Positions 496 through 16,115 of a DNA stretch of 64,000 nt are shown one piece after another. The notes beneath the pieces are model-generated. The model worked only from the letters and a program-made list of their open reading frames with translations. It was not told where the DNA came from and did no database searches. The stretch covers positions 3,534,001 to 3,598,000 of the forward strand of contig NZ_CP034570.1 in assembly GCF_003970695.1 (NCBI RefSeq), written 5' to 3'. The stretch is from Maribacter sp. MJ134 (lineage in GTDB: Bacteria > Bacteroidota > Bacteroidia > Flavobacteriales > Flavobacteriaceae). Position numbers and translations under genes: made by a program. Position 1 is the stretch's first letter, and each line of letters starts with the position of its first letter.

Positions 496-756
496 ATGAA
501 TATATCCGTAGAGCTTACATTCTCACCCTTGCAGGATGATTTCGAAGAACACATTATCAACTTTATTAAAAAACTAAGGAATTCTGGCTTAACCGTCCTT
601 GAGAATCCGCTGAGCACCCAGGTTTATGGCGAATACGATGCTGTAATGAAGGTTTTACATCAGGAAATAAAAATAGCCTTTGAACTTATGGATAAAGGCT
701 TATTGTACATGAAGTTGGTAAAATCTGACAGAAGCGATTATGAGCCTCTTTTTTGA
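496..756 (+). CDS. Thiamine-binding protein, DUF77/MTH1187-YkoF family
   Basis: An 86-residue cytosolic protein that looks like the single-domain MTH1187/YkoF-related family, whose members bind thiamine or its pyrimidine part. The pattern MNISVELTFSPL, then GLTVLENPLSTQVYGEYD and a C-terminal segment ending YMKLVKSDRSD, fits the ferredoxin-like fold of that family. It overlaps the next gene by 17 bases, so the two are translationally coupled. Thiamine binding is known for the family; here it is inferred. Its pairing with PnuC and a nicotinamide-riboside kinase means the ligand could also be another vitamin. Confidence 0.7.
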   Translation: MNISVELTFSPLQDDFEEHIINFIKKLRNSGLTVLENPLSTQVYGEYDAVMKVLHQEIKIAFELMDKGLLYMKLVKSDRSDYEPLF

Positions 757-1372
757 TTGGATTTTTGCCCAGTATCAAGATACACCATCACATCTAATCG
801 TATTGGAGATGATCGGGGTATTTTTTGGCTTTCTAAGCGTATGGTATTCCAAACAAGAAAATATCCTTGTATTCCCTACAGGGATTATAAGTACGGGAAT
901 ATTCGTTTATATTCTTCTGGTATTCGGTTTATTGGGAGATATGTTGATTAACGCTTACTACTTTTCCATGAGTGTATTTGGCTGGTACGTTTGGACAAGG
1001 AAAGTGGATGACAGTCATTTTACACCCGTTACAAGAACTACGCTGCAAGAAAAAAAATGGTCGGTTGCCCTCTTTGTATCCACGATCCTATTTGTTTGTG
1101 TTATCTATTGGATTTTTGATAAGTTCAATAACTGGACGGCATACGTAGACACCTTTACGACCGCTATCTTTTTTGTAGGGATGTGGCTCATGGCCAAGAA
1201 GAAGTTAGAAAACTGGATATATTGGATAATTGGAGATATCATATCTGTTCCTCTGTATTTGTACAAAGGACTTATATTTACATCGCTCCAGTTCTTTTTA
1301 TTTACCATTATTGCTATTTACGGTTATCTCGCATGGAAGAAAAGTATAAACAACAACCTTCAGACCTCTTAA
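740..1372 (+). CDS. pnuC: PnuC-family vitamin transporter, probably nicotinamide riboside
   Basis: A 210-residue inner-membrane protein with about seven hydrophobic helices. It has the PnuC landmarks: a tryptophan-rich helix ending FGWYVW near residue 85 and an FVGMWLMAKKKLENWIYWII segment in the second half. PnuC proteins pass nicotinamide riboside by facilitated diffusion, and the kinase then traps it. The kinase gene overlaps the 3' end by 40 bases, which strongly supports the riboside as substrate. A second PnuC paralogue at 14605 sits in a thiamine operon. The upstream thiamine-binding gene leaves some doubt about this one's ligand. Confidence 0.85.
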   Translation: MSLFFDWIFAQYQDTPSHLIVLEMIGVFFGFLSVWYSKQENILVFPTGIISTGIFVYILLVFGLLGDMLINAYYFSMSVFGWYVWTRKVDDSHFTPVTRTTLQEKKWSVALFVSTILFVCVIYWIFDKFNNWTAYVDTFTTAIFFVGMWLMAKKKLENWIYWIIGDIISVPLYLYKGLIFTSLQFFLFTIIAIYGYLAWKKSINNNLQTS

Positions 1373-1896
1373 AAGTTGTCCTTTTCGGGCCGGAATCAAC
1401 AGGAAAAACGACCCTTTCGGAGCAGTTGGCCAGACATTATAATACAGTCTGGGTGCCAGAGTACGCACGGGAGTACTTACAGCGAAAATGGAACAATGAG
1501 CGGAAGACCTGTGAACCGCATGATTTGTTGCCCATTGCTGCTGGGCAAATGCGATTGGAAAATAGTCTGACCAAAAAAGCTACAGAAATTCTGATATGCG
1601 ATACAGATTTATTGGAGACCAAAGTATATTCGGAGGCCTATTATATTGGTAATTGTGACCCTATTCTTGAAAAACATGCCTTGCGGAACAAATATGACCT
1701 GTATTTTTTAACCTACATAGATATTCCCTGGGAGGCAGATGATTTACGGGATAAACCTGAGGAGCGAGAAGAAATGTTTTCTTATTTTAAAAATACATTA
1801 GAGAAATACGGGCGTAATTTTATTATATTAAAGGGAAATAAAAAGGAGCGTTTAAAAACGGCCATAGCACACATAGATAAATTATTAGAGAAATGA
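1333..1896 (+). CDS. NadR-like nicotinamide riboside kinase domain protein
   Basis: A 187-residue P-loop kinase matching the C-terminal kinase domain of NadR: VLFGPESTGKTTLSEQL at residues 14-30 is the Walker A loop, followed by VPEYAREYL and the acidic CDTDLLETKVY stretch. It lacks the helix-turn-helix and adenylyltransferase domains of E. coli NadR, so it should only phosphorylate nicotinamide riboside to NMN. The ATG at 1333 was chosen because it gives the usual short N-terminus; a longer in-frame reading only extends into pnuC. It overlaps pnuC and shares an ATGA junction with the next gene, so all sit in one operon. Confidence 0.85.
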   Translation: MEEKYKQQPSDLLKVVLFGPESTGKTTLSEQLARHYNTVWVPEYAREYLQRKWNNERKTCEPHDLLPIAAGQMRLENSLTKKATEILICDTDLLETKVYSEAYYIGNCDPILEKHALRNKYDLYFLTYIDIPWEADDLRDKPEEREEMFSYFKNTLEKYGRNFIILKGNKKERLKTAIAHIDKLLEK

Positions 1897-3431
1897 TGGA
1901 ATTTACGGAGAAAGATAAGGAACAGTTAAAGTCTAAAGGGATATCCGAAACGAAGGTAAGCGCACAGATTGAAACATTTAAGGAAGGAATCCCCTTCGTT
2001 AATTTACAACGCGCCGCGGTAGTCGGTGATGGTATTTATAGGTTTACCAAAGAAGAGGAAGAAGATTTGGTTCGTAGTTACGAAACTAATGCCAAGAACC
2101 TTTCCATATTAAAATTTGTTCCGGCTTCCGGTGCCGCCTCCCGTATGTTCAAAGCCTTATTCAATTTTCTGGATGCTTACGATCCAACGGAAGAAACCTT
2201 TGACGCATACTTAGAGCGATCCAATGATAAGGACCTTAAGGTATTTGCTGAAGGGATTAAAAACTTTCCTTTTTACCAAAAAGTCAAGGATAGGCTTAAT
2301 CAAGAAAGTGCTACCAAAGGTGAAGAGGTATATGCATTCGTTTCTGAAATGATGGGAGAAGATGCACTTAATTACGGTTTTTATCCAAAGGGGTTACTGC
2401 CTTTTCATCAATATGACAACAATACGGCAACGCCTTTTGAAGAGCATTTAAAAGAGGGCGCACTCTATGGCGCCTCCAAGGGCAATGCCAAACTTCATTT
2501 TACCATTTCTGAACAGCATGAGGAAATGTTCAAGGAAGAGTTTTCGCAAGTCGGGACTAGGGTTTCGGAAGCTACGGGAACGGCATTTACTGTGGGTTAC
2601 TCATTCCAAAAATCGGCCACCGATACTATTGCCGTAGATATGAACAACAAGCCATTTAGGAACAATGACGGCTCTGTTTTGTTTAGACCTGGAGGTCATG
2701 GCGCTTTGATTGAAAACTTAAACGAGCAAGATGAGGATATTATCTTCATCAAGAACATAGATAATGTAGCGGTGATGCGCGATGCGGATGCCGTGGCCCA
2801 AAGCAAAAAGATATTGGCGGGAGTATTACTAAATGCACAGAAAAAGGCGTTTGATTATATGAGATTAATACAAGGTGATGGTGTTGATGAGAACCAAAGT
2901 GCTGAAATAAAACAATTTTTAGAGTCCAAGCTTAATGCTAGATTCGCTGGCGATTATGATCGTCTTACAAAGGAAGAACAATTAAAAGCTCTTCAAGAAA
3001 AGTTGCAACGCCCCATTAGGGTCTGTGGTATGGTAAAGAATGAAGGTGAGCCCGGAGGTGGTCCGTTTTGGATAACGAATGCACAGGGAGAATTATCGCT
3101 TCAAATTATAGAATCGGCCCAAATAGATATGGACGACCAAAAACAGGTTGCTATCTTAAAGAATTCCACCCATTTTAACCCTGTAGATTTGGTTTGCGGG
3201 GTACGTAATCAGAAAGGGGAGAAACTGGACCTTTTAAAATTCGTAGATCACAAACAAGGCTTTATAACAAGTAAAACTAAAGATGGTAAGGAGTTAAAGG
3301 CCTTAGAGCTGCCTGGTCTATGGAATGGAGCCATGGCATACTGGAACACTATTTTTGTAGAGGTACCTTTGGTCACCTTCAATCCGGTAAAAACGGTAAA
3401 CGACTTATTAAAGCCCTCACATCAAGGTTAA
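1893..3431 (+). CDS. DUF4301 family protein
   Basis: A 512-residue soluble protein that I recognise as the DUF4301 family, found mostly in Bacteroidetes. Visible features are an N-terminal helical part, FVPASGAASRMFKAL around residue 74 (conserved Gly/Ala/Ser-rich loop), FRPGGHGALIENLN around residue 263 and GEPGGGPFWI around residue 384. No signal peptide or membrane segment. The glycine-rich loops resemble a nucleotide-binding enzyme, perhaps a sugar-nucleotide transferase, but this is only an inference. The start overlaps the stop of the kinase gene (ATGA), and a strong hairpin follows 20 bases after the stop, so this is the last gene of the operon. Confidence 0.8.
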   Translation: MMEFTEKDKEQLKSKGISETKVSAQIETFKEGIPFVNLQRAAVVGDGIYRFTKEEEEDLVRSYETNAKNLSILKFVPASGAASRMFKALFNFLDAYDPTEETFDAYLERSNDKDLKVFAEGIKNFPFYQKVKDRLNQESATKGEEVYAFVSEMMGEDALNYGFYPKGLLPFHQYDNNTATPFEEHLKEGALYGASKGNAKLHFTISEQHEEMFKEEFSQVGTRVSEATGTAFTVGYSFQKSATDTIAVDMNNKPFRNNDGSVLFRPGGHGALIENLNEQDEDIIFIKNIDNVAVMRDADAVAQSKKILAGVLLNAQKKAFDYMRLIQGDGVDENQSAEIKQFLESKLNARFAGDYDRLTKEEQLKALQEKLQRPIRVCGMVKNEGEPGGGPFWITNAQGELSLQIIESAQIDMDDQKQVAILKNSTHFNPVDLVCGVRNQKGEKLDLLKFVDHKQGFITSKTKDGKELKALELPGLWNGAMAYWNTIFVEVPLVTFNPVKTVNDLLKPSHQG

Positions 3432-3626: not shown

Positions 3627-3926
3627 ATGAAAAAGTTAGTTTATGTCATCGCAATCGTATTGGGAGGAATAGTTGTAAATGCCGCAGAGGCACCAAAAGT
3701 TCAGGATATGCTCATGGAAGAATTTATTATTCAAGATTTCACGGAGATTGCTACCTCCGACCTTCCGCAGGCAGTGATTGATGCTTTGACTACAGATTTT
3801 CCTAGTGCTACTTTAAACAAGGCCTACGTTAATAGCGAGGGACAGTATAAATTAGAAATCGCTAAAGAAGACGGTAGTACAGCAGCCTTATATGCAGATG
3901 CAGAAGGCAACTGGTTAGAAATGTAA
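3627..3926 (+). CDS. Small secreted PepSY-like protein, paralogue 1
   Basis: A 99-residue protein with a cleavable signal peptide (about residues 1-19, ending NAAEA) and one compact domain: DFTEIATSDLPQAVIDAL, FPSATLNKAYV, then QYKLEIAKEDGS and a C-terminal YADAEGNWLEM. This beta-strand/helix order is that of the PepSY-like fold, seen in periplasmic proteins of Bacteroidetes. The paralogue at 5105 shares most of these residues and the one at 4085 is more distant. It is a single-gene unit, with its own terminator 29 bases after the stop. Function unknown; an inhibitory or binding role is only a guess from the fold. Confidence 0.8.
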   Translation: MKKLVYVIAIVLGGIVVNAAEAPKVQDMLMEEFIIQDFTEIATSDLPQAVIDALTTDFPSATLNKAYVNSEGQYKLEIAKEDGSTAALYADAEGNWLEM

Positions 3927-4084: not shown

Positions 4085-4390
4085 ATGAAAAGATACGCGA
4101 TACTAGCACTTGTTGCCATTGGAACGATTTTTAATGCAGGAGCCAAGGATATTATAAATTTAGGGGATGATTATTCTTACGTTGTTATCACAGATGACTT
4201 CAAAAAAGTAAGCTCAAAAGAACTAACTCCTCCTGTAGTTGAAGAATTATTGAAACAGTACCCTACTTCTAAACTCGGAGCCGTTTACAAAAATTCCAAA
4301 GGAGAATTTAAGCTTATTATGGTTTTAAAGAGCGGCACTAGAAGAACCGTTTATATAGATTCCTACGGTAATTGGTTCAAAAAGAAGTAA
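4085..4390 (+). CDS. Small secreted PepSY-like protein, paralogue 2 (diverged)
   Basis: A 101-residue protein with signal peptide (residues 1-20, ending NAGA) and the same C-terminal layout as its neighbours: LTPPVVEELLKQYPTSKLGAVYKNS, then EFKLIMVLKSGTRRTVYID and YGNWFKKK. The last residues are basic where paralogues 1 and 3 are acidic, so the mature protein likely has a different surface charge. It is preceded by 100 bases without a gene and followed at once by a terminator, so it appears to be its own transcription unit. Role unknown. Confidence 0.78.
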   Translation: MKRYAILALVAIGTIFNAGAKDIINLGDDYSYVVITDDFKKVSSKELTPPVVEELLKQYPTSKLGAVYKNSKGEFKLIMVLKSGTRRTVYIDSYGNWFKKK

Positions 4391-5104: not shown

Positions 5105-5413
5105 ATGAAGAAGTCGTTTTTAATAGGATTGTTCGCAATGGCCAGTATTTCAGTAATGGCACAGAATGCTCAGGAAGTGAAAGTATCAGCTGAGGCAGAA
5201 AATATTGAAATTATAAATCAGGATTTCTCAGAAATTGATGTTACTGAATTACCTACGGCGGTGACTGAAGCAGTAAGCAAAAATTACCCTATATCTACCA
5301 TAAACAAAGCCTACGTTAATGAGAGTAAACAATATAAGTTAGAAGTTTCTTTGGAGGATGGTACTTCGGGTACCTTGTATGCGGACGAGTATGGGAATTG
5401 GTTGGATATGTAA
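5105..5413 (+). CDS. Small secreted PepSY-like protein, paralogue 3
   Basis: A 102-residue protein with signal peptide (residues 1-19, ending SVMAQ) and a domain very close to paralogue 1: DFSEIDVTELPTAVTEAV, YPISTINKAYVNE, QYKLEVSLEDG, and a C-terminus YADEYGNWLDM. The close match suggests the 1/3 pair arose by a recent duplication with paralogue 2 as an older branch. It forms its own transcription unit with a terminator 36 bases after the stop. Periplasmic or exported; function unknown. Confidence 0.8.
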   Translation: MKKSFLIGLFAMASISVMAQNAQEVKVSAEAENIEIINQDFSEIDVTELPTAVTEAVSKNYPISTINKAYVNESKQYKLEVSLEDGTSGTLYADEYGNWLDM

Positions 5414-6845: not shown

Positions 6846-6936
6846 GGGTTAGCTAAAATGCGTTAGCACAATAATTTGCCTTTTTGTTCAAATAAGATTT
6901 TGATAGTAATTAATTGGTGATAAAGTAATTTTTACA

Positions 6937-7377
6937 ATGAAAATATTTTTTTTGCAGATACTCAAATTCAAATTTATGTTTATGTTATTTTTCCTGTGTA
7001 ACACATCGTTTTCACATGGGCAAACCTTATATGCGCTGAAGATAGATAGGAATATACGTAAAGAAGCCACAGAAATTACGGCTGAATATCAACCGCGTTT
7101 GGTAATGGGGGTAGATCAAACATTGGAATTTAAATCTACCGTTGCAAAATATTTGGTTAAAAAACAGGCTGTGAAATCAGATAACAGCCTATCTGCCAAA
7201 GCAAAGTATAATCTACTAAAGCGGTTGTCAAGTCAGGAATCTTCTGATATGGCCGATGTTCTAGAATCCTATCGTTTACAGGAGTACCTAAGGATTAAAC
7301 TAAAAATTCAACCCATACCTAAACCAAGGGCATACAAAGAAAACTTAATTGCACAGGATAATGGAGGTATTAATTGA
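6937..7377 (+). CDS. Secreted protein of unknown function
   Basis: A 146-residue protein with a hydrophobic N-terminus (about residues 3-28, ending SFSHGQ) that reads as a signal peptide. The mature part is helical and basic, with ITAEYQPRLVMG near residue 49 and a C-terminal PIPKPRAYKENL. Not recognised. It lies 113 bases upstream of the sigma-54 response regulator, in the same direction. A downstream start at the second or fourth Met of the leader is also possible. Confidence 0.6.
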   Translation: MKIFFLQILKFKFMFMLFFLCNTSFSHGQTLYALKIDRNIRKEATEITAEYQPRLVMGVDQTLEFKSTVAKYLVKKQAVKSDNSLSAKAKYNLLKRLSSQESSDMADVLESYRLQEYLRIKLKIQPIPKPRAYKENLIAQDNGGIN

Positions 7378-11397: not shown

Positions 11398-11405
11398 TAC
11401 ATTTG
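11398..11405 (+). promoter_or_regulatory. -7 promoter box of the thiamine operon
   Basis: TACATTTG fits the Bacteroidetes -7 consensus TAnnTTTG and stands just before the riboswitch, so transcription would start around 11410, at the base of the aptamer. No clear -33 TTG was found at the usual distance. Confidence 0.55.
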
Positions 11406-11409
11406 TATC

Positions 11410-11525
11410 ATCTCAAAGGGGTGCTAAGTCCCGAACAAAAATCAGGCTGGTCCTGAACGGAGTTCAGGATAAAGCTGAGATTATACCCAAAGAACCTGGG
11501 CGGGTAATGCCGCCAAGGGAAGCGA
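11410..11525 (+). promoter_or_regulatory. TPP (thiamine pyrophosphate) riboswitch
   Basis: The conserved THI-element core is readable: GGGGTGC at the 5' side, GCTGAGA at 11474-11480, ACCC then GAACCTG, GGGTAATGCC and finally AAGGGAAG. A variable hairpin with arms TCCTGAAC and GTTCAGGA (11451-11468 or so) is the expected P3 extension. A weaker stem-loop at 11549-11577 (GTTGC...CCAAAA / TTTTGG...GCAAC) may be the expression platform. TPP binding normally lowers expression of the downstream genes. The receptor gene starts 110 bases later. Confidence 0.9.
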
Positions 11526-11635
11526 TAATCGCTATTAGGTAACGCACGGTTGCGCCAAAAAAGTTTTGGAAGGCAACTAAAAATTTAATTTTAACTTAGA
11601 ATAATAGCCCCTTTTATTCGTAAACTATTTTACGA

Positions 11636-13810
11636 ATGAAGTACACTATTTTCACAACATTGGCCATATTCGGCCTAACAATGGCCTCACAGGCCCAACA
11701 ACAACCAGCGGATTCCATAGAAGGTAAAAAAGTAGTGCTAGACGAGGTCTTCGTTTCCGCTATTAGGGTAACCAAGGAATCTCCCGTAACGTTTTCCAAC
11801 TTAACAAAGGAGGATATTAAACCTCGAAATTTAGGTCAAGATATTCCTATTTTGATGAACTTTCTACCATCTGTGGTCACCACCTCCGATGCAGGAGCGG
11901 GAATAGGGTATACCGGTATACGGGTACGTGGTAGTGATGCCACGAGGGTAAACGTAACCATTAACGGCATACCGTATAACGATGCCGAATCTCAAGGCAC
12001 GTTCTGGGTAAATATGCCAGACTTTGCTTCCTCTACGGAGAGTTTGCAGTTGCAACGTGGGGTAGGTACCTCTACTAACGGGGCGGGAGCCTTTGGTGCA
12101 AGTTTGAATTTATTGACAGATGGTTTTTCGGAAGAAGCCTATGCGCAAATTTCATCTTCCGTAGGAAGTTTCAATACCCTGCGGAGTAACATAAAATTCA
12201 GCACCGGATTATTGAACGATCATATAGAGATTTCCGGACGTTTATCACAAATAAACTCGGATGGATACATAGATCGGGCACGTGCCGATATGGATTCCTA
12301 CTTTCTGCAAGGAGCTTATAAGGATGATAACACCCTCATCAAGGCCTTATTGTTCGGTGGGCATGAGATTACCTATCAATCTTGGTTCGGTATAGACGCA
12401 GCAACATTGGAAAGTGATCGAACTTTTAATCCGGCAGGTATATATACGGACGAAAATGGAAATACACAATTCTATGATAACGAGGTAGATAATTACAAAC
12501 AGGATCATGCACAGTTGTTATGGAATGAACAAATATCCGATACTTGGAGTACTAACGTGGCCCTACATTACACTCGTGGGAGAGGCTTTTTTGAGCAATT
12601 CCGGGAAGATGACGATTTCGAGACCTATGGTTTTGAGCCGTTAACCGTTAATGGTGAGGTAGTAAATACGACCGATTTAATTCGCAGACGATGGCTGGAT
12701 AATGATTTCTATGGCACGGTGTTCTCCGCAAACTATGTTAAGGACAAACTAAACCTGATTATCGGTGGCGGTTGGAACAAGTATGAAGGAGATCATTTTG
12801 GGGAGGTAATTTGGGCACGTTTTGCTAGCGATAGTGAAATTAGGGATCGTTACTACGACGATAACTCTACCAAGACAGATTTTAACATGTACACCAAGGC
12901 CAATTACCAATTAAATACGCAATGGTCACTGTATGGAGATCTTCAATATAGAAGAGTGGGGTACCGTGCAAACGGGGAAGATACCGGTCTGGTAGACGAT
13001 ACCTTTAATTTTTTCAATCCCAAGGCAGGAGTTACCTTCGATTTAAACCGGAACAACAACTTCTATTTTTCCTATGCCGTAGCTAACCGCGAACCTAATA
13101 GAAACGACTACGAAAGCGGAAATCCAAGACCAGAAAGGCTTAACGATTTTGAACTGGGGTGGCGTTATGTATCTCCGGACATACAATTGAATACCAACAT
13201 CTATTACATGAACTATAAAGACCAACTGGTCCTAACAGGTGAATTAAACGATGTTGGCGCACCCTTACGGGAAAACGTAGGAGACAGTTATAGATTGGGA
13301 CTGGAGATTGATGCGTCCATTAGATTCAATGATAAATTCAGCATACAACCCAACATAGCCCTAAGCACAAATAAGAACCAGGATTTCGTTTTTCAGCGAG
13401 ATGGTGTGCTGCAGGAGTTGGGGAATACCAATATTGCATATTCGCCCAATATCATTTTTGGCAATATGTTTACCTATAGCCCTACCGATACTTTTCAAGT
13501 ATCCCTTTTATCTAAATATGTAGGGGAGCAATACATGGGCAACATCGATTCGGAGACATCTATATTAGATGCCTATTCCCAAACAGATTTTAATGTGCAG
13601 TATGAGTTAAAATGTGATGGTTTTTTAAAGAGTATCGTATTCTCCGGACTGGTAAACAACATATTTGATGCTAAGTTTGAGTCTAACGGATACTTCTTCA
13701 CTTTTGATGATGATTTCTCGGACCCAAATGTAATTACCACAATTGAAGGTGCTGGATTTTATCCGCAGGCGGGAATAAACTTTTTACTTGGGGCAACGGT
13801 CAATTTTTAG
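11636..13810 (+). CDS. TonB-dependent outer-membrane receptor, probably for thiamine or a precursor
   Basis: A 724-residue outer-membrane barrel that imports ligands using the TonB energy system. It has a signal peptide (residues 1-20, ending ASQAQ), a plug domain (VVLDEVFVSAIRVTKESPVTF; then GIRVRGSDATRVNVTINGIPYNDA; LQLQRGVGTSTNGAGAFGASLNL) and a beta-barrel ending in the aromatic residue of NFLLGATVNF. There is no carboxypeptidase-like N-terminal extension and no SusD partner. Its place directly under a TPP riboswitch points to thiamine, a phosphate ester or a breakdown product as ligand; such receptors under TPP control are known in Bacteroidetes. It is the first gene of a four-gene run. 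Confidence 0.9.
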   Translation: MKYTIFTTLAIFGLTMASQAQQQPADSIEGKKVVLDEVFVSAIRVTKESPVTFSNLTKEDIKPRNLGQDIPILMNFLPSVVTTSDAGAGIGYTGIRVRGSDATRVNVTINGIPYNDAESQGTFWVNMPDFASSTESLQLQRGVGTSTNGAGAFGASLNLLTDGFSEEAYAQISSSVGSFNTLRSNIKFSTGLLNDHIEISGRLSQINSDGYIDRARADMDSYFLQGAYKDDNTLIKALLFGGHEITYQSWFGIDAATLESDRTFNPAGIYTDENGNTQFYDNEVDNYKQDHAQLLWNEQISDTWSTNVALHYTRGRGFFEQFREDDDFETYGFEPLTVNGEVVNTTDLIRRRWLDNDFYGTVFSANYVKDKLNLIIGGGWNKYEGDHFGEVIWARFASDSEIRDRYYDDNSTKTDFNMYTKANYQLNTQWSLYGDLQYRRVGYRANGEDTGLVDDTFNFFNPKAGVTFDLNRNNNFYFSYAVANREPNRNDYESGNPRPERLNDFELGWRYVSPDIQLNTNIYYMNYKDQLVLTGELNDVGAPLRENVGDSYRLGLEIDASIRFNDKFSIQPNIALSTNKNQDFVFQRDGVLQELGNTNIAYSPNIIFGNMFTYSPTDTFQVSLLSKYVGEQYMGNIDSETSILDAYSQTDFNVQYELKCDGFLKSIVFSGLVNNIFDAKFESNGYFFTFDDDFSDPNVITTIEGAGFYPQAGINFLLGATVNF

Positions 13811-13818
13811 GGGAAAGG

Positions 13819-14604
13819 ATGTTTCAGGATTTGAAACTACATCATAGGGATGGTTTTATAACTACCAATATCCCTGCTTTAAAGGATAGTAAGCTAAGAG
13901 CCGCTTTACAACGGTTCTTAGTGCTGCCCTTATCTAAAAGAATGAAGTATTCCCAGAAGAAATTAGAGGTTGCATTTGATGGCTATTCCTATATGGGTCA
14001 GACAGACAGTCTAAACCAGTATGACAGCGATTTGTTACACTCCTTTGTGCTTTCTGATATAAGTGACCAAGAAAATTTCCCGCAACCTTTTCAGCAATAT
14101 TTAAGCCAAGAATTTCCGGAGCAGTTGCTTTTGATCAGAGAATTGGAGAAAGAAATATTAAAGAGACTAGGTTTTAGTAAGTTTAATATTTTCTATGAGA
14201 ACCACGTTAGCCACATGGTGTCCTGTAATTTTTATCCGGAGTTAACGAATAGCGTCCATAATATAGAACTCTCAGAACGACTTTCATACCACACCGATGT
14301 TTCTTTGTTTTCCATATTTCTCTTTGGACTTGAGTCTGGCTTTTCATACGAGAAATCCTCTGGAGATAAGGTTGTTTTAGACAGCATAGATGAGGTAGTG
14401 CTCTTTCCGGGTCATTTAATGGAACTAATGTCCAATGGAAAAATTAAGGCTTTGAATCATGGTGTAGTACTCCCGGAAAATAGAATGGAGCAACGATTTT
14501 CGTTTGCCTTCTTTTCCTTGCCGAAACCACAGGCCAATATGCAGTTCGGTTCGTTCAAAGGAAGTGGAAAAGACTATTATAAGCAGTACTTAAATCAGTT
14601 TTAA
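13819..14604 (+). CDS. Fe(II)/2-oxoglutarate-dependent oxygenase, IPNS-like, in the thiamine operon
   Basis: A 261-residue cytosolic protein that starts 8 bases after the receptor gene. It carries the iron facial triad and co-substrate residues of the isopenicillin-N-synthase-like oxygenase superfamily: His158-x-Asp160 (in LSYHTDVS), distal His214 (in KALNHGVV) and Arg226-x-Ser228 (in RFSFAFF), with correct spacing, plus the usual FPGHLMELMSNG strand-turn before the distal His. The family uses O2 and 2-oxoglutarate (or O2 alone) to hydroxylate or cyclise small molecules. Here the substrate is unknown, but the operon implies a thiamine-related compound. No known thiamine enzyme of this class comes to mind. 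Confidence 0.75.
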   Translation: MFQDLKLHHRDGFITTNIPALKDSKLRAALQRFLVLPLSKRMKYSQKKLEVAFDGYSYMGQTDSLNQYDSDLLHSFVLSDISDQENFPQPFQQYLSQEFPEQLLLIRELEKEILKRLGFSKFNIFYENHVSHMVSCNFYPELTNSVHNIELSERLSYHTDVSLFSIFLFGLESGFSYEKSSGDKVVLDSIDEVVLFPGHLMELMSNGKIKALNHGVVLPENRMEQRFSFAFFSLPKPQANMQFGSFKGSGKDYYKQYLNQF

Positions 14605-15195
14605 GTGAATACCGAAAATATAGCTTTAAGTCTAGAAATAATGGCGGTGGTATTCGGCTTGGCCTATCTTTATTTCTTGATACACGAAAAAAGAATATGC
14701 TGGTTGTTCGGCATAGCCTCCTCTTTATTAAGTATTGTTATCTTTTATCAGAACAATCTATATTCAGAAGCGGTCTTATTTGTTTACTATGTTATTATTG
14801 GCGTTTATGGGTTTTGGTTATGGACTACTAAGTACGAGCAGAATATACCCGTTACGATTGTTAAAATACCTAAGAAAACACTTTTGGTAAGCATTGTTTT
14901 AGGTAGTTTAGGTGCGATTTCCTTGGGTTGGTTCTTCTCGAATTTTACAGATGCGGATAGCCCTTATTTCGATGCCACTACAACGGGCTTCAGTTTTGTA
15001 GCCAGTTATTTAGAAGTTAAAAAGTACATAGCGGCGTGGCTATTTTGGATAGTAATCAACGGAGCTACTATTTATTTGTATTTAACAAAAGACTTGAACA
15101 TATATACTTTATTGACCGTAGTATATTTTGCCTTCTCCTTTTATGGTTTTTGGAATTGGAAAGTAAAATACAGGGATGCCGTTCTGCAGCCCTGA
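14605..15195 (+). CDS. pnuT: PnuT-type thiamine transporter (PnuC family)
   Basis: A 196-residue inner-membrane protein with seven or so hydrophobic helices and PnuC-family marks: ICWLFGIASSLLSI near residue 32, YYVIIGVYGFWLW near residue 60 and SYLEVKKYIAAWLFWIVIN in the second half. PnuC homologues under TPP riboswitches are known as PnuT thiamine carriers, so thiamine is the likely cargo. It starts with GTG directly after the TAA of the oxygenase gene, which fits translational coupling; an ATG at 14641 would cut off the first predicted helix. The receptor would bring the ligand into the periplasm and this protein into the cytosol. Confidence 0.85.
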   Translation: MNTENIALSLEIMAVVFGLAYLYFLIHEKRICWLFGIASSLLSIVIFYQNNLYSEAVLFVYYVIIGVYGFWLWTTKYEQNIPVTIVKIPKKTLLVSIVLGSLGAISLGWFFSNFTDADSPYFDATTTGFSFVASYLEVKKYIAAWLFWIVINGATIYLYLTKDLNIYTLLTVVYFAFSFYGFWNWKVKYRDAVLQP

Positions 15196-15221
15196 CAATA
15201 TTCACTTAAAAACGGAATAAT

Positions 15222-16115
15222 ATGAAAAAACTTAAAATTGCATTGGACTGGACTGCGAATACCAACCATACTGGTTTTTACGTGGCAAAAGAGAAGGGGT
15301 ATTACTCCGATTTAGGATTGGAAGTAGCTCTAATAACGCCGGATAGTGATAACTATTCGGTAACCCCCGTCAAAAAAGTGGAACTTGGTCAAGCAGATTT
15401 GGCACTTTGCCCTCTAGAAAGTATTGTTAGTTATAAAACTAAAAAACGACCTTTTGATGCCGTAGCCTTAGCCACAATTTTTAAGGAGGATATAAGTGCC
15501 ATTGCTGTTCTGGAAAAGAGTGCAATTCTTGGTCCTAAAGATTTGGATGGTTGCACTTACGCTTCTTACAAGGCCAGATATGAAGATGAGATAGTAAGGC
15601 AAATGATAAAGAATGATGGCGGAAACGGTACGTTTAAGATTACTTATCCGGAAAAGTTGGGCATTTGGGAAACCATCCTTAATGGTACGGCTGATGCTAC
15701 CTGGATTTTTACCAATTGGGAAGGAATTCGTGCACAGCAAGAAGGGATTAAATTAAACCTGTTTAAAATGGCGGACTATGGAATACCTTATGGATATTCG
15801 CCTGTAATTATGGCCAATAGGGAAACGGTGGATAAACAGAAGGAAATCTATTCAAAAGTTTTGAAGGCCACTAAGAAAGGGTTTTTATTTGCACAGAAAG
15901 AGCCGGAAATCGCCATAGAAAGCATTAAGCCATTTGTAGCAAAGGAAGATAACAATATCGATTTGGTAGCGAGTCAAATGTACACCTCCCCCTATTACGG
16001 AAATTCGGATAATTGGGGTATCATGGAAAAAGAGCACGTCAATAGCTTTTTATCTTGGCTTCAAAATAAGGGTTTGGAAAAAGCACCTTTATCCTATAAG
16101 GATGTGGTCTTTTAA
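15222..16115 (+). CDS. NMT1/THI5-like protein without signal peptide
   Basis: A 297-residue protein of the THI5/NMT1 and ThiY-type periplasmic-binding fold. The N-terminus (KIALDWTANTNHTGFYVAKEKGYY), GQADLALCPLES and GTADATWIFTNWEG match the pyrimidine-binding family. ThiY proteins are secreted lipoproteins with ABC partners; this one has no signal peptide and no permease or ATPase gene nearby. The fungal suicide enzyme THI5 uses a histidine (His66) and a CCCFC motif; the matching places here read CPLES and GIPYGYSP, so that chemistry is not supported. It may be a cytosolic pyrimidine carrier or an uncharacterised enzyme. It is the last operon gene, 26 bases after pnuT. Confidence 0.8.
   Translation: MKKLKIALDWTANTNHTGFYVAKEKGYYSDLGLEVALITPDSDNYSVTPVKKVELGQADLALCPLESIVSYKTKKRPFDAVALATIFKEDISAIAVLEKSAILGPKDLDGCTYASYKARYEDEIVRQMIKNDGGNGTFKITYPEKLGIWETILNGTADATWIFTNWEGIRAQQEGIKLNLFKMADYGIPYGYSPVIMANRETVDKQKEIYSKVLKATKKGFLFAQKEPEIAIESIKPFVAKEDNNIDLVASQMYTSPYYGNSDNWGIMEKEHVNSFLSWLQNKGLEKAPLSYKDVVF

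What the first reader, a model, noticed from the sequence alone, without database searches (positions are those of the whole stretch)
11398..16115. TPP-riboswitch operon containing an Fe(II)/2-oxoglutarate oxygenase of unknown role
Seen in sequence: a TPP riboswitch core followed by TonB receptor, a 261-residue protein with His158-x-Asp160, His214 and Arg226-x-Ser228 (the IPNS-type oxygenase signature), a PnuT-type transporter and a THI5-like protein, with gaps of 8, 0 and 26 bases. Known: TPP switches control thiamine uptake and synthesis, and PnuT carries thiamine. Inference: the oxygenase modifies an imported thiamine-related compound (for example an oxidised or alkylated pyrimidine or thiazole), making a salvage route not described to my knowledge. 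This is the strongest candidate for an undescribed system here.
Basis: partly seen in the sequence, partly recalled or inferred. Interest (0 to 1): 0.8.

Follow-up and report, generated by a model that had tools for sequence, protein, structure and literature searches.

The report
Oxygenase paired with vitamin B1 uptake
A marine bacterium that seems unable to make vitamin B1 carries, inside its B1-uptake operon, an oxygen-using enzyme of unknown substrate that travels with B1-type transporters in several distant bacterial groups, so it may help the cell use some modified form of the vitamin.

Summary
A divergent TPP aptamer (11407-11538) precedes a TonB receptor, a 261-aa Fe(II)/2-oxoglutarate oxygenase with intact His158-Asp160-His214 and Arg226-x-Ser228, a PnuC/PnuT-family carrier and an NMT1/THI5-fold protein, gaps 8, 0 and 26 bases. 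Twelve homologous loci were found, in Bacteroidota, Pseudomonadota and Chloroflexota. In 9 of 12 the oxygenase adjoins a PnuT of one clade; in a tenth (Caldilineaceae) it ends a TPP-led operon with a thiamine-type ABC transporter. The five residues are invariant in 12 of 12. The link to thiamine uptake is thus well supported. The THI5-like protein lacks the Thi5 catalytic residues (recalled); its closest solved relative was solved with thiamin bound. Best reading: a rare accessory enzyme that oxidatively turns an imported, intact but modified thiamine into usable thiamine. The substrate is unknown, no activity is shown, and structure prediction never ran. I found no description in the open-licence papers searched.

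The parts
11407..11538 (+). TPP riboswitch aptamer (RF00059), divergent, with a long insertion in a variable arm
   Evidence: 36.5 bits, E 1.1e-5, model 1-105/105, below the gathering score of 54.3; only TPP match with E below 1 in the genome; syntenic match in 13 of 13 congeneric loci given to cmscan
11636..13810 (+). TonB-dependent outer-membrane receptor, probably thiamine-type
   Evidence: PF00593 and PF07715; TPP aptamer directly upstream; match at E 1e-120 in 34 of 36 genus genomes
13819..14604 (+). Fe(II)/2-oxoglutarate oxygenase, the subject; triad H158, D160, H214; 2OG residues R226, S228
   Evidence: PF03171 43.7 bits; the five residues invariant in 12 of 12 homologues; dN/dS 0.12 against the Maribacter antarcticus copy
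14605..15195 (+). PnuC/PnuT-family carrier of the oxygenase-linked clade (called PnuT2 here)
   Evidence: PF04973 157.5 bits; in an 18-row clade with support 100/99 that holds all nine oxygenase-adjacent carriers
15222..16115 (+). NMT1/THI5-fold protein without visible signal peptide; probable cytoplasmic thiamine-type binding protein (inference)
   Evidence: PF09084 163.5 bits; best solved match 4nmy, E 1.7e-36, described as thiamin-bound; the protein starts MKKLKIALDW
496..756 (+). Thiamine_BP homologue in a separate cluster
   Evidence: PF01910 26.5 bits, cut-off 24.9
740..1372 (+). Second PnuC-family carrier, outside the oxygenase-linked clade
   Evidence: PF04973 178 bits; 26% identity to the first; separate branch in the tree
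1333..1896 (+). NadR-like P-loop kinase, candidate thiamine kinase (inferred); start estimated from the 187-aa homologue in L008, ORF listed as 1183-1896
   Evidence: 87% to the L008 copy; PF13521 153 bits; a homologue adjoins the PnuC gene in 19 of 19 oxygenase-free loci L088-L106

Best explanation
The oxygenase is an accessory enzyme of thiamine acquisition. When TPP is low the riboswitch lets the TonB receptor, oxygenase, PnuT2 and the thiamine-binding-like protein be made. Receptor and PnuT2 bring in thiamine or a thiamine-type compound. The oxygenase uses Fe(II), O2 and 2-oxoglutarate to oxidise a group on an intact but modified thiamine, so that usable thiamine is released; the NMT1-fold protein may hold substrate or product in the cytoplasm. 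Thiamine is then phosphorylated (candidate kinase 1333-1896) and finished by ThiL. Shown: the gene order, the recurring link to thiamine-type transporters in three phyla, the invariant triad, purifying selection, and, in this genome, no match to ThiC, ThiE or TPK with ThiL present. Inferred: co-regulation, that the substrate is an intact thiamine derivative, the direction of the reaction, and every chemical step. One concrete substrate guess, from general chemistry and untested, is a C2-substituted thiamine such as 2-(1-hydroxyethyl)thiamine, whose oxidation would give an acyl-thiamine that hydrolyses to thiamine.
For: Oxygenase beside a PnuT2-clade gene in 9 of 12 loci, and last + strand gene of a TPP-led Thiamine_BP/permease/NMT1 binding protein/ATPase operon in a tenth. 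PnuT2 clade support 100/99. Triad and Arg-x-Ser invariant in 12 of 12. TPP aptamer leads the oxygenase's strand in window, L008 and L014, and lies in the same cluster on the receptor in L012, L013 and L015. ThiC absent in 10 of 12 genomes, ThiE in 9, TPK in 9; ThiD matches above 170 bits in only 3; ThiL over cut-off in 10. The NMT1 protein is closest to a thiamin-bound structure. Expression at low TPP, usual for TPP switches (general knowledge, direction untested here), fits salvage better than breakdown.
Against: No activity, substrate or structure is shown. The gene is rare (3 of 196 order genomes, 2 of 36 genus genomes, 1 of 395 phylum genomes, each count including the window's own), so most relatives do without it. 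L010 and L009 show no thiamine gene beside it, and G196 and G199 have ThiC, ThiE and ThiD. Eight of the 18 carriers of the PnuT2 clade come from genomes without an oxygenase match, so PnuT2 does not need it. Six of 12 loci have no TPP aptamer near the oxygenase. I know of no abundant natural modified thiamine that is an obvious substrate. Absence of thiamine synthesis is common in marine bacteria and no baseline was run, so it counts against half-molecule salvage but is not itself evidence of enrichment.
Confidence: 0.42

Rival explanations
1. Detoxification: the oxygenase destroys thiamine antivitamins (for example methoxy- or oxo-analogues) that enter through the same uptake system.
For: Rare, sporadic distribution and an extra gene set at the end of an existing uptake operon fit a defence-like accessory gene; the profile's solved relatives include O-demethylases (5o7y, 9vgi).
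Against: A TPP aptamer leading the oxygenase in three loci ties it to vitamin shortage rather than to the presence of a toxin; in 10 of 12 loci its partner is an importer.
Confidence: 0.17
2. One reading: salvage of a modified pyrimidine or thiazole half.
For: Thymine dioxygenase 5c3p is among the profile's solved relatives (E 4.7e-10); three oxygenase genomes have ThiE and a ThiD match above 170 bits (G196, G197, G199); half-molecule vitamers (HMP, AmMP, FAMP, HET, cHET) are measured in seawater work (PMC10881298, passages).
Against: In the window's genome and 8 other oxygenase genomes ThiC and ThiE gave no match and no ThiD match exceeds 49 bits, so known enzymes could not join the halves.
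Confidence: 0.12
3. The PnuT2-oxygenase pair handles another compound (another vitamin or nucleoside-like molecule) and sits in the thiamine operon only for regulatory reasons.
For: PnuC-family members carry several vitamins (recalled); six loci have no TPP aptamer near the oxygenase; the window has a second PnuC gene beside the candidate kinase.
Against: In G034 and G022 the oxygenase-linked carrier is the only PnuC-family match at E 1e-10 while a TPP-led receptor and the kinase lie elsewhere, so it may well be the thiamine carrier there; the Caldilineaceae operon has no PnuT but has thiamine-type ABC parts.
Confidence: 0.13
4. Oxygen-dependent alternative synthesis of the pyrimidine, the THI5-like protein acting as a Thi5-type HMP-P synthase with help from the oxygenase.
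For: NMT1/THI5 fold, no visible signal peptide and an O2-using neighbour.
Against: Lys62, His66 and the CCCFC motif of Thi5 (recalled) align with unlike residues; no ThiE match and only a weak ThiD one to use HMP-P; an NMT1 gene was found in the oxygenase's operon in only 3 of 12 loci (window, L008, L014).
Confidence: 0.03
5. Thiamine breakdown: oxidation of the methylene bridge cleaves thiamine.
For: Hydroxylation next to nitrogen is typical dealkylation chemistry of the superfamily (recalled).
Against: An apparent thiamine auxotroph would be breaking its own vitamin under a TPP switch.
Confidence: 0.04

Closest known systems
Bacteroidetes TPP-regulated thiamine uptake operons (OMthi, pnuT, tnr3; PMC5613172, passages read)
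   Same: TPP aptamer, TonB receptor and PnuT-family carrier together
   Different: Here no TPK/tnr3 match in the genome, and an oxygenase plus an NMT1 protein are added; 'oxygenase' and 'oxoglutarate' occur nowhere in the main text of that paper
Fe(II)/2-oxoglutarate oxygenases of the PF03171 type (plant dioxygenases, thymine dioxygenase, DAOCS)
   Same: Triad, Arg-x-Ser and an N-x-Y-P segment; profile E 4.1e-12 to 4xae, 4.7e-10 to 5c3p
   Different: Its own invariant N-terminal segment F53-D54-G55-Y56-S57-Y58-x-G60-Q61 with S64, N66 and Q67; no NCBIfam family matched at E 1 or better
ThiY and the thiamin-bound binding protein 4nmy
   Same: NMT1 fold; 4nmy E 1.7e-36, ThiY 3ix1 E 5.2e-19
   Different: No visible signal peptide and no ABC partner genes beside the window's protein
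Thi5/Thi13 HMP-P synthase
   Same: NMT1 fold; 4esw E 9.4e-7
   Different: Catalytic residues (recalled) not kept; no ThiE match and only a weak ThiD match in the genome

Membership tests
TPP riboswitch (RF00059) | Full-length match of the aptamer model | tested here: met
   Model 1-105 of 105, E 1.1e-5
TPP riboswitch (RF00059) | Score at or above Rfam's gathering cut-off | tested here: not met
   36.5 against 54.3 bits; 13 congeneric leaders also score only 30.6-44 bits, so I call it a divergent TPP-like aptamer
TPP riboswitch (RF00059) | TPP binding and control of the operon | not testable with these tools
   -
Fe(II)/2-oxoglutarate oxygenase (PF03171) | H-x-D...H triad and R-x-S 2OG site | tested here: met
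   H158, D160, H214, R226, S228 invariant in 12 of 12; PF03171 over cut-off in the window's protein and the 3 homologues scanned
Fe(II)/2-oxoglutarate oxygenase (PF03171) | Double-stranded beta-helix fold | not tested
   Prediction queue full at all 11 tries
Fe(II)/2-oxoglutarate oxygenase (PF03171) | 2OG-coupled oxidation of a substrate | not testable with these tools
   -
PnuT (thiamine carrier of the PnuC family) | PnuC-family transporter | tested here: met
   PF04973 157.5 bits; 4qtn PnuC E 1.6e-12 with profile A2
PnuT (thiamine carrier of the PnuC family) | Closer to characterised PnuT than to PnuC, and thiamine transport | not tested
   No characterised PnuT sequence was at hand; NCBIfam names the protein PnuC (TIGR01528, 86.8 bits, cut-off 42.45)
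Thi5-type HMP-P synthase | Lys62, His66 and CCCFC motif (recalled) | tested here: not met
   Alignment with 4esw (in which position 66 reads Gly)
ABC binding protein of the ThiY kind | NMT1 fold related to ThiY | tested here: met
   3ix1 E 5.2e-19 and 4nmy E 1.7e-36
ABC binding protein of the ThiY kind | Signal peptide or lipobox, and adjacent permease and ATPase genes | tested here: not met
   Judged by eye: protein starts MKKLKIALDW; neighbours are PnuT2 and a GAF/PAS-like protein

The most novel reading that the evidence does not exclude
An undescribed oxygen-dependent route of vitamin B1 salvage: a dedicated Fe(II)/2-oxoglutarate oxygenase subfamily, spread among Bacteroidota, Pseudomonadota and Chloroflexota, repairs intact but modified (for example C2-substituted or alkylated) thiamine that thiamine auxotrophs import through PnuT2 or an NMT1-type ABC system.
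Probability: 0.38. Interest if true: 0.75.

Novelty: new variant of a known kind. Interest (0 to 1): 0.58.

Why it matters
Up to 78% of bacterioplankton taxa were B1 auxotrophs in one coastal system (PMC10881298, abstract as shown), and the salvage routes named there (tenA, thiM) deal with the two halves of the molecule. An enzyme that rescues intact modified thiamine would mean that gene-based scoring of auxotrophy and the measured list of vitamers miss a usable pool. The recurring PnuT2-oxygenase pair is a defined two-gene system to test.

Tried and rejected
Chance co-location: rejected, because importers recur beside divergent homologues (36-45% identity to the window's protein, 68% in M. 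antarcticus) in different arrangements: co-directional, divergent and ABC operon.

Half-molecule salvage and Thi5-like synthesis: ranked low for lack of ThiE and of a good ThiD match in this genome and of the Thi5 residues. ThiG, TenA, ThiN, ThiK and ThiM were not searched as families; ThiM was seen only in passing.

ThiC absence (10 of 12) is not used as evidence of enrichment: no baseline was run in relatives.

Plasmid search with the oxygenase: no match. A strict hand-made aptamer pattern matched only 4 of 30 genus leaders; I replaced it by cmscan on 13 of those 30 loci, 13 of 13 positive but all below the gathering score.

Structure and fold search: never ran; 11 submissions met a full queue, so no fold evidence is offered.

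Sampling limits: the search for related loci relied on two short peptide patterns and confirmed 9 of 33 stretches, so the family size is a lower bound. In one search at most 6 candidates a genome were scored and the limit was E 1e-15. In one search, 143 of 196 order genomes matched, but loci came only with the 30 best matches. The tree has 40 rows; L077 (the window's own gene), L082 and L083 (the same genes as L005 and L006) were left out. Two of the oxygenase-free PnuT2 genomes are incomplete (G083 65%, G091 66%).
Full report
What is there. The window (G000:C1:3534001-3598000) holds a TPP aptamer 11407-11538, TonB receptor 11636-13810, oxygenase 13819-14604, PnuT-like 14605-15195 and NMT1-like 15222-16115, all on the + strand with gaps of 8, 0 and 26 bases. 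Pfam confirms the four proteins. No terminator-like site was found on the + strand between 11300 and 16300 (the three found are on the - strand); promoter-like sites did not exceed shuffles (14 found, mean 13.1). The best-scoring one on the + strand lies at 15192-15221, just before the NMT1 gene, so an extra promoter there is not excluded. The aptamer scores 36.5 bits, below Rfam's gathering score; 13 of 13 congeneric loci given to cmscan, of 30 fetched, have a TPP match upstream of the same receptor (30.6-44 bits).

The organism. The nearest named relative is Maribacter antarcticus DSM 21422 (L008, 68% identity, same four-gene order). Of 36 genomes held for the window's genus, 2 carry the oxygenase, own included. 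The other, G564, has its gene at the same contig coordinates as L008 and I count the two as one.

The homologues. Order search: 3 of 196 genomes at E 1e-10. Phylum search with a 12-row profile: 1 of 395 at E 1e-15, the window itself. Pattern scan of genome contigs (84,980 species): 9 confirmed loci. Together 12 distinct loci: window, L005, L006 and L007-L015. They come from Flavobacteriales, an unclassified Bacteroidetes MAG, Saprospiraceae, Halieaceae/Pseudomonadales, Francisella and Caldilineaceae. All 12 keep H158, D160, H214, R226 and S228 and an invariant N-terminal segment around F53-Q67. Between the two Maribacter copies dN is 0.217 and dS 1.781, ratio 0.12.

The neighbourhoods. Window and L008: TPP, receptor, oxygenase, PnuT2, NMT1. 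L011: oxygenase then PnuT2, co-directional. L005, L006 and L007: PnuT2 and oxygenase divergent. L012, L013 and L015: PnuT2 and oxygenase divergent, with a TPP-led TonB receptor convergent on the other side. L014: TPP aptamer (locus 6850-6979, computed from the contig coordinates), Thiamine_BP, permease, NMT1 protein, ATPase, oxygenase, all on one strand. L009 (4.3-kb contig) and L010 (20.7 kb) show no thiamine gene beside it; in the genome of L009 a receptor behind a weak TPP match (26.6 bits, E 0.019) and a PnuT2 lie on another contig (L045). So 10 of 12 adjoin a thiamine-type importer, 9 of them PnuT2. A TPP match exists in 12 of 12 genomes at E 0.1, over the gathering score in 5 of 12. It leads the oxygenase strand in 3 of 12, lies in the same cluster on the receptor in 3, and elsewhere in the genome in 6; cmscan at E 1 found none in L047, L048, L011, L007, L009 and L010.

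PnuT2 is a clade. In a 40-row tree the nine oxygenase-adjacent carriers, the G198 carrier and 8 carriers from genomes without an oxygenase match form one group with support 100/99, apart from the PnuC genes beside a NadR-like kinase. The kinase-linked type is the usual arrangement in the order: in 19 of 19 loci L088-L106 a NadR-like kinase adjoins the PnuC gene, and in 16 of 19 the TonB receptor is also on the fetched piece. Five genomes of family f8 have PnuT2 without an oxygenase match; in L078, L080 and L081 it stands beside the same SecA-like neighbour (named by eye) as in G034 and G022, with no oxygenase gene on the other side. The oxygenase is therefore an optional partner of PnuT2.

The slot in the genus. 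The receptor was matched in 34 of 36 genus genomes and loci were fetched for 30 (L109-L138). After the receptor they show: oxygenase-PnuT2-NMT1 in 2, NMT1 alone in 1 (L119), a ThiM gene in 1 (L123, after a gap of about 550 bases), a 221-aa protein in 15 (one of them a short 83-aa ORF; judged by the printed first 45 letters), no extra gene in 10, and 1 cut off (L120). The operon end is a place where genes come and go.

Vitamin genes of the 12 genomes. ThiC absent in 10 (present in G196 and G199). ThiE absent in 9 (present in G196, G197 and G199). TPK absent in 9 (present in G196, G199 and G203). ThiD: G197 alone passes the curated cut-off; G199 (201.8 bits) and G196 (172.9) come close; G204, G198, G201, G202, G203, G200 and G000 have matches of at most 48.5 bits, and G034 and G022 none. 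ThiL over cut-off in 10, not in G199 and G203. Completeness is stated only for G000 (99.99%), G034 (97%) and G022 (99%). The window's organism thus has no known means of using free pyrimidine or thiazole and should need thiamine or TMP from outside. As no TPK matched and ThiL needs TMP, a thiamine kinase is needed if free thiamine is imported; the NadR-like kinase at 1333-1896 is the obvious candidate (inference).

The NMT1 protein. Its best solved match is 4nmy (E 1.7e-36), listed as an ABC binding protein 'with thiamin-bound' (PMC10586155, passage). It shows no signal peptide by eye, and Thi5's catalytic positions (recalled) are not kept in the alignment with 4esw. I see it as a cytoplasmic thiamine-type binding protein rather than a Thi5 enzyme.

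Mechanism. TPP switches usually allow expression when TPP is short (general knowledge). The importer brings in a thiamine-type compound and the oxygenase oxidises a substituent so that thiamine results. This is inference from context. Breakdown of thiamine under shortage makes little sense; detoxification of antivitamins remains possible. The profile's solved relatives (plant hydroxylases and demethylases, thymine dioxygenase) do not decide the substrate.

Literature. Searches (listings). Passages of PMC5613172, PMC10470507, PMC10881298, PMC12442306, PMC12236431 and PMC5301498 were seen. 'Oxygenase' anywhere in a word, 'hydroxylase' and 'oxoglutarate' occur nowhere in the main text of the first four; PMC12236431 has only ammonia-monooxygenase. 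PMC5301498 reports a TPP element before pnuC/pnuT genes in acI Actinobacteria; its one dioxygenase is for retinal. PMC8247775 and PMC9741282 turned up in listings and were not opened. The library holds open-licence papers only, so this is weak evidence of absence.

Verdict. A recurring but rare association, undescribed as far as these searches show; an added enzyme in a known kind of operon. Interest 0.58.

Noticed in passing
496-3431: Thiamine_BP homologue, second PnuC, NadR-like kinase and DUF4301 form a cluster; no TPK or ThiE matched in the genome but ThiL did, so the NadR-like kinase is a candidate thiamine kinase. A homologue adjoins the PnuC gene in 19 of 19 oxygenase-free loci L088-L106.
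   Followed up: partly
11616-11637: Perfect hairpin (ATTCGTAAA-CTAT-TTTACGAAT) overlapping the receptor's ATG; could be the translational expression platform of the riboswitch (sequence, fold).
   Followed up: no
L127:3760-4425 and 14 other Maribacter loci: A 221-aa protein (83 aa in L121) follows the TPP-led TonB receptor in 15 of 30 genus loci; only a sub-threshold Pfam match (PF00834, E 0.0082).
   Followed up: partly
L119, 3707-4612 in the orientation: NMT1 protein directly after the TonB receptor without oxygenase or PnuT2, so it can occur in the operon alone.
   Followed up: no
L123:141-942 (- strand): ThiM gene downstream of the same TonB receptor in one Maribacter genome.
   Followed up: no
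3627-3926, 4085-4390, 5105-5413: Three short, similar-looking ORFs of about 100 aa with signal-like starts between DUF4301 and a regulator gene.
   Followed up: no
L022 (G199:C40:90438-90533): TPP aptamer (69.9 bits) upstream of what looks by eye like a PQ-loop-type membrane protein in the Francisella genome; perhaps another kind of thiamine carrier.
   Followed up: no
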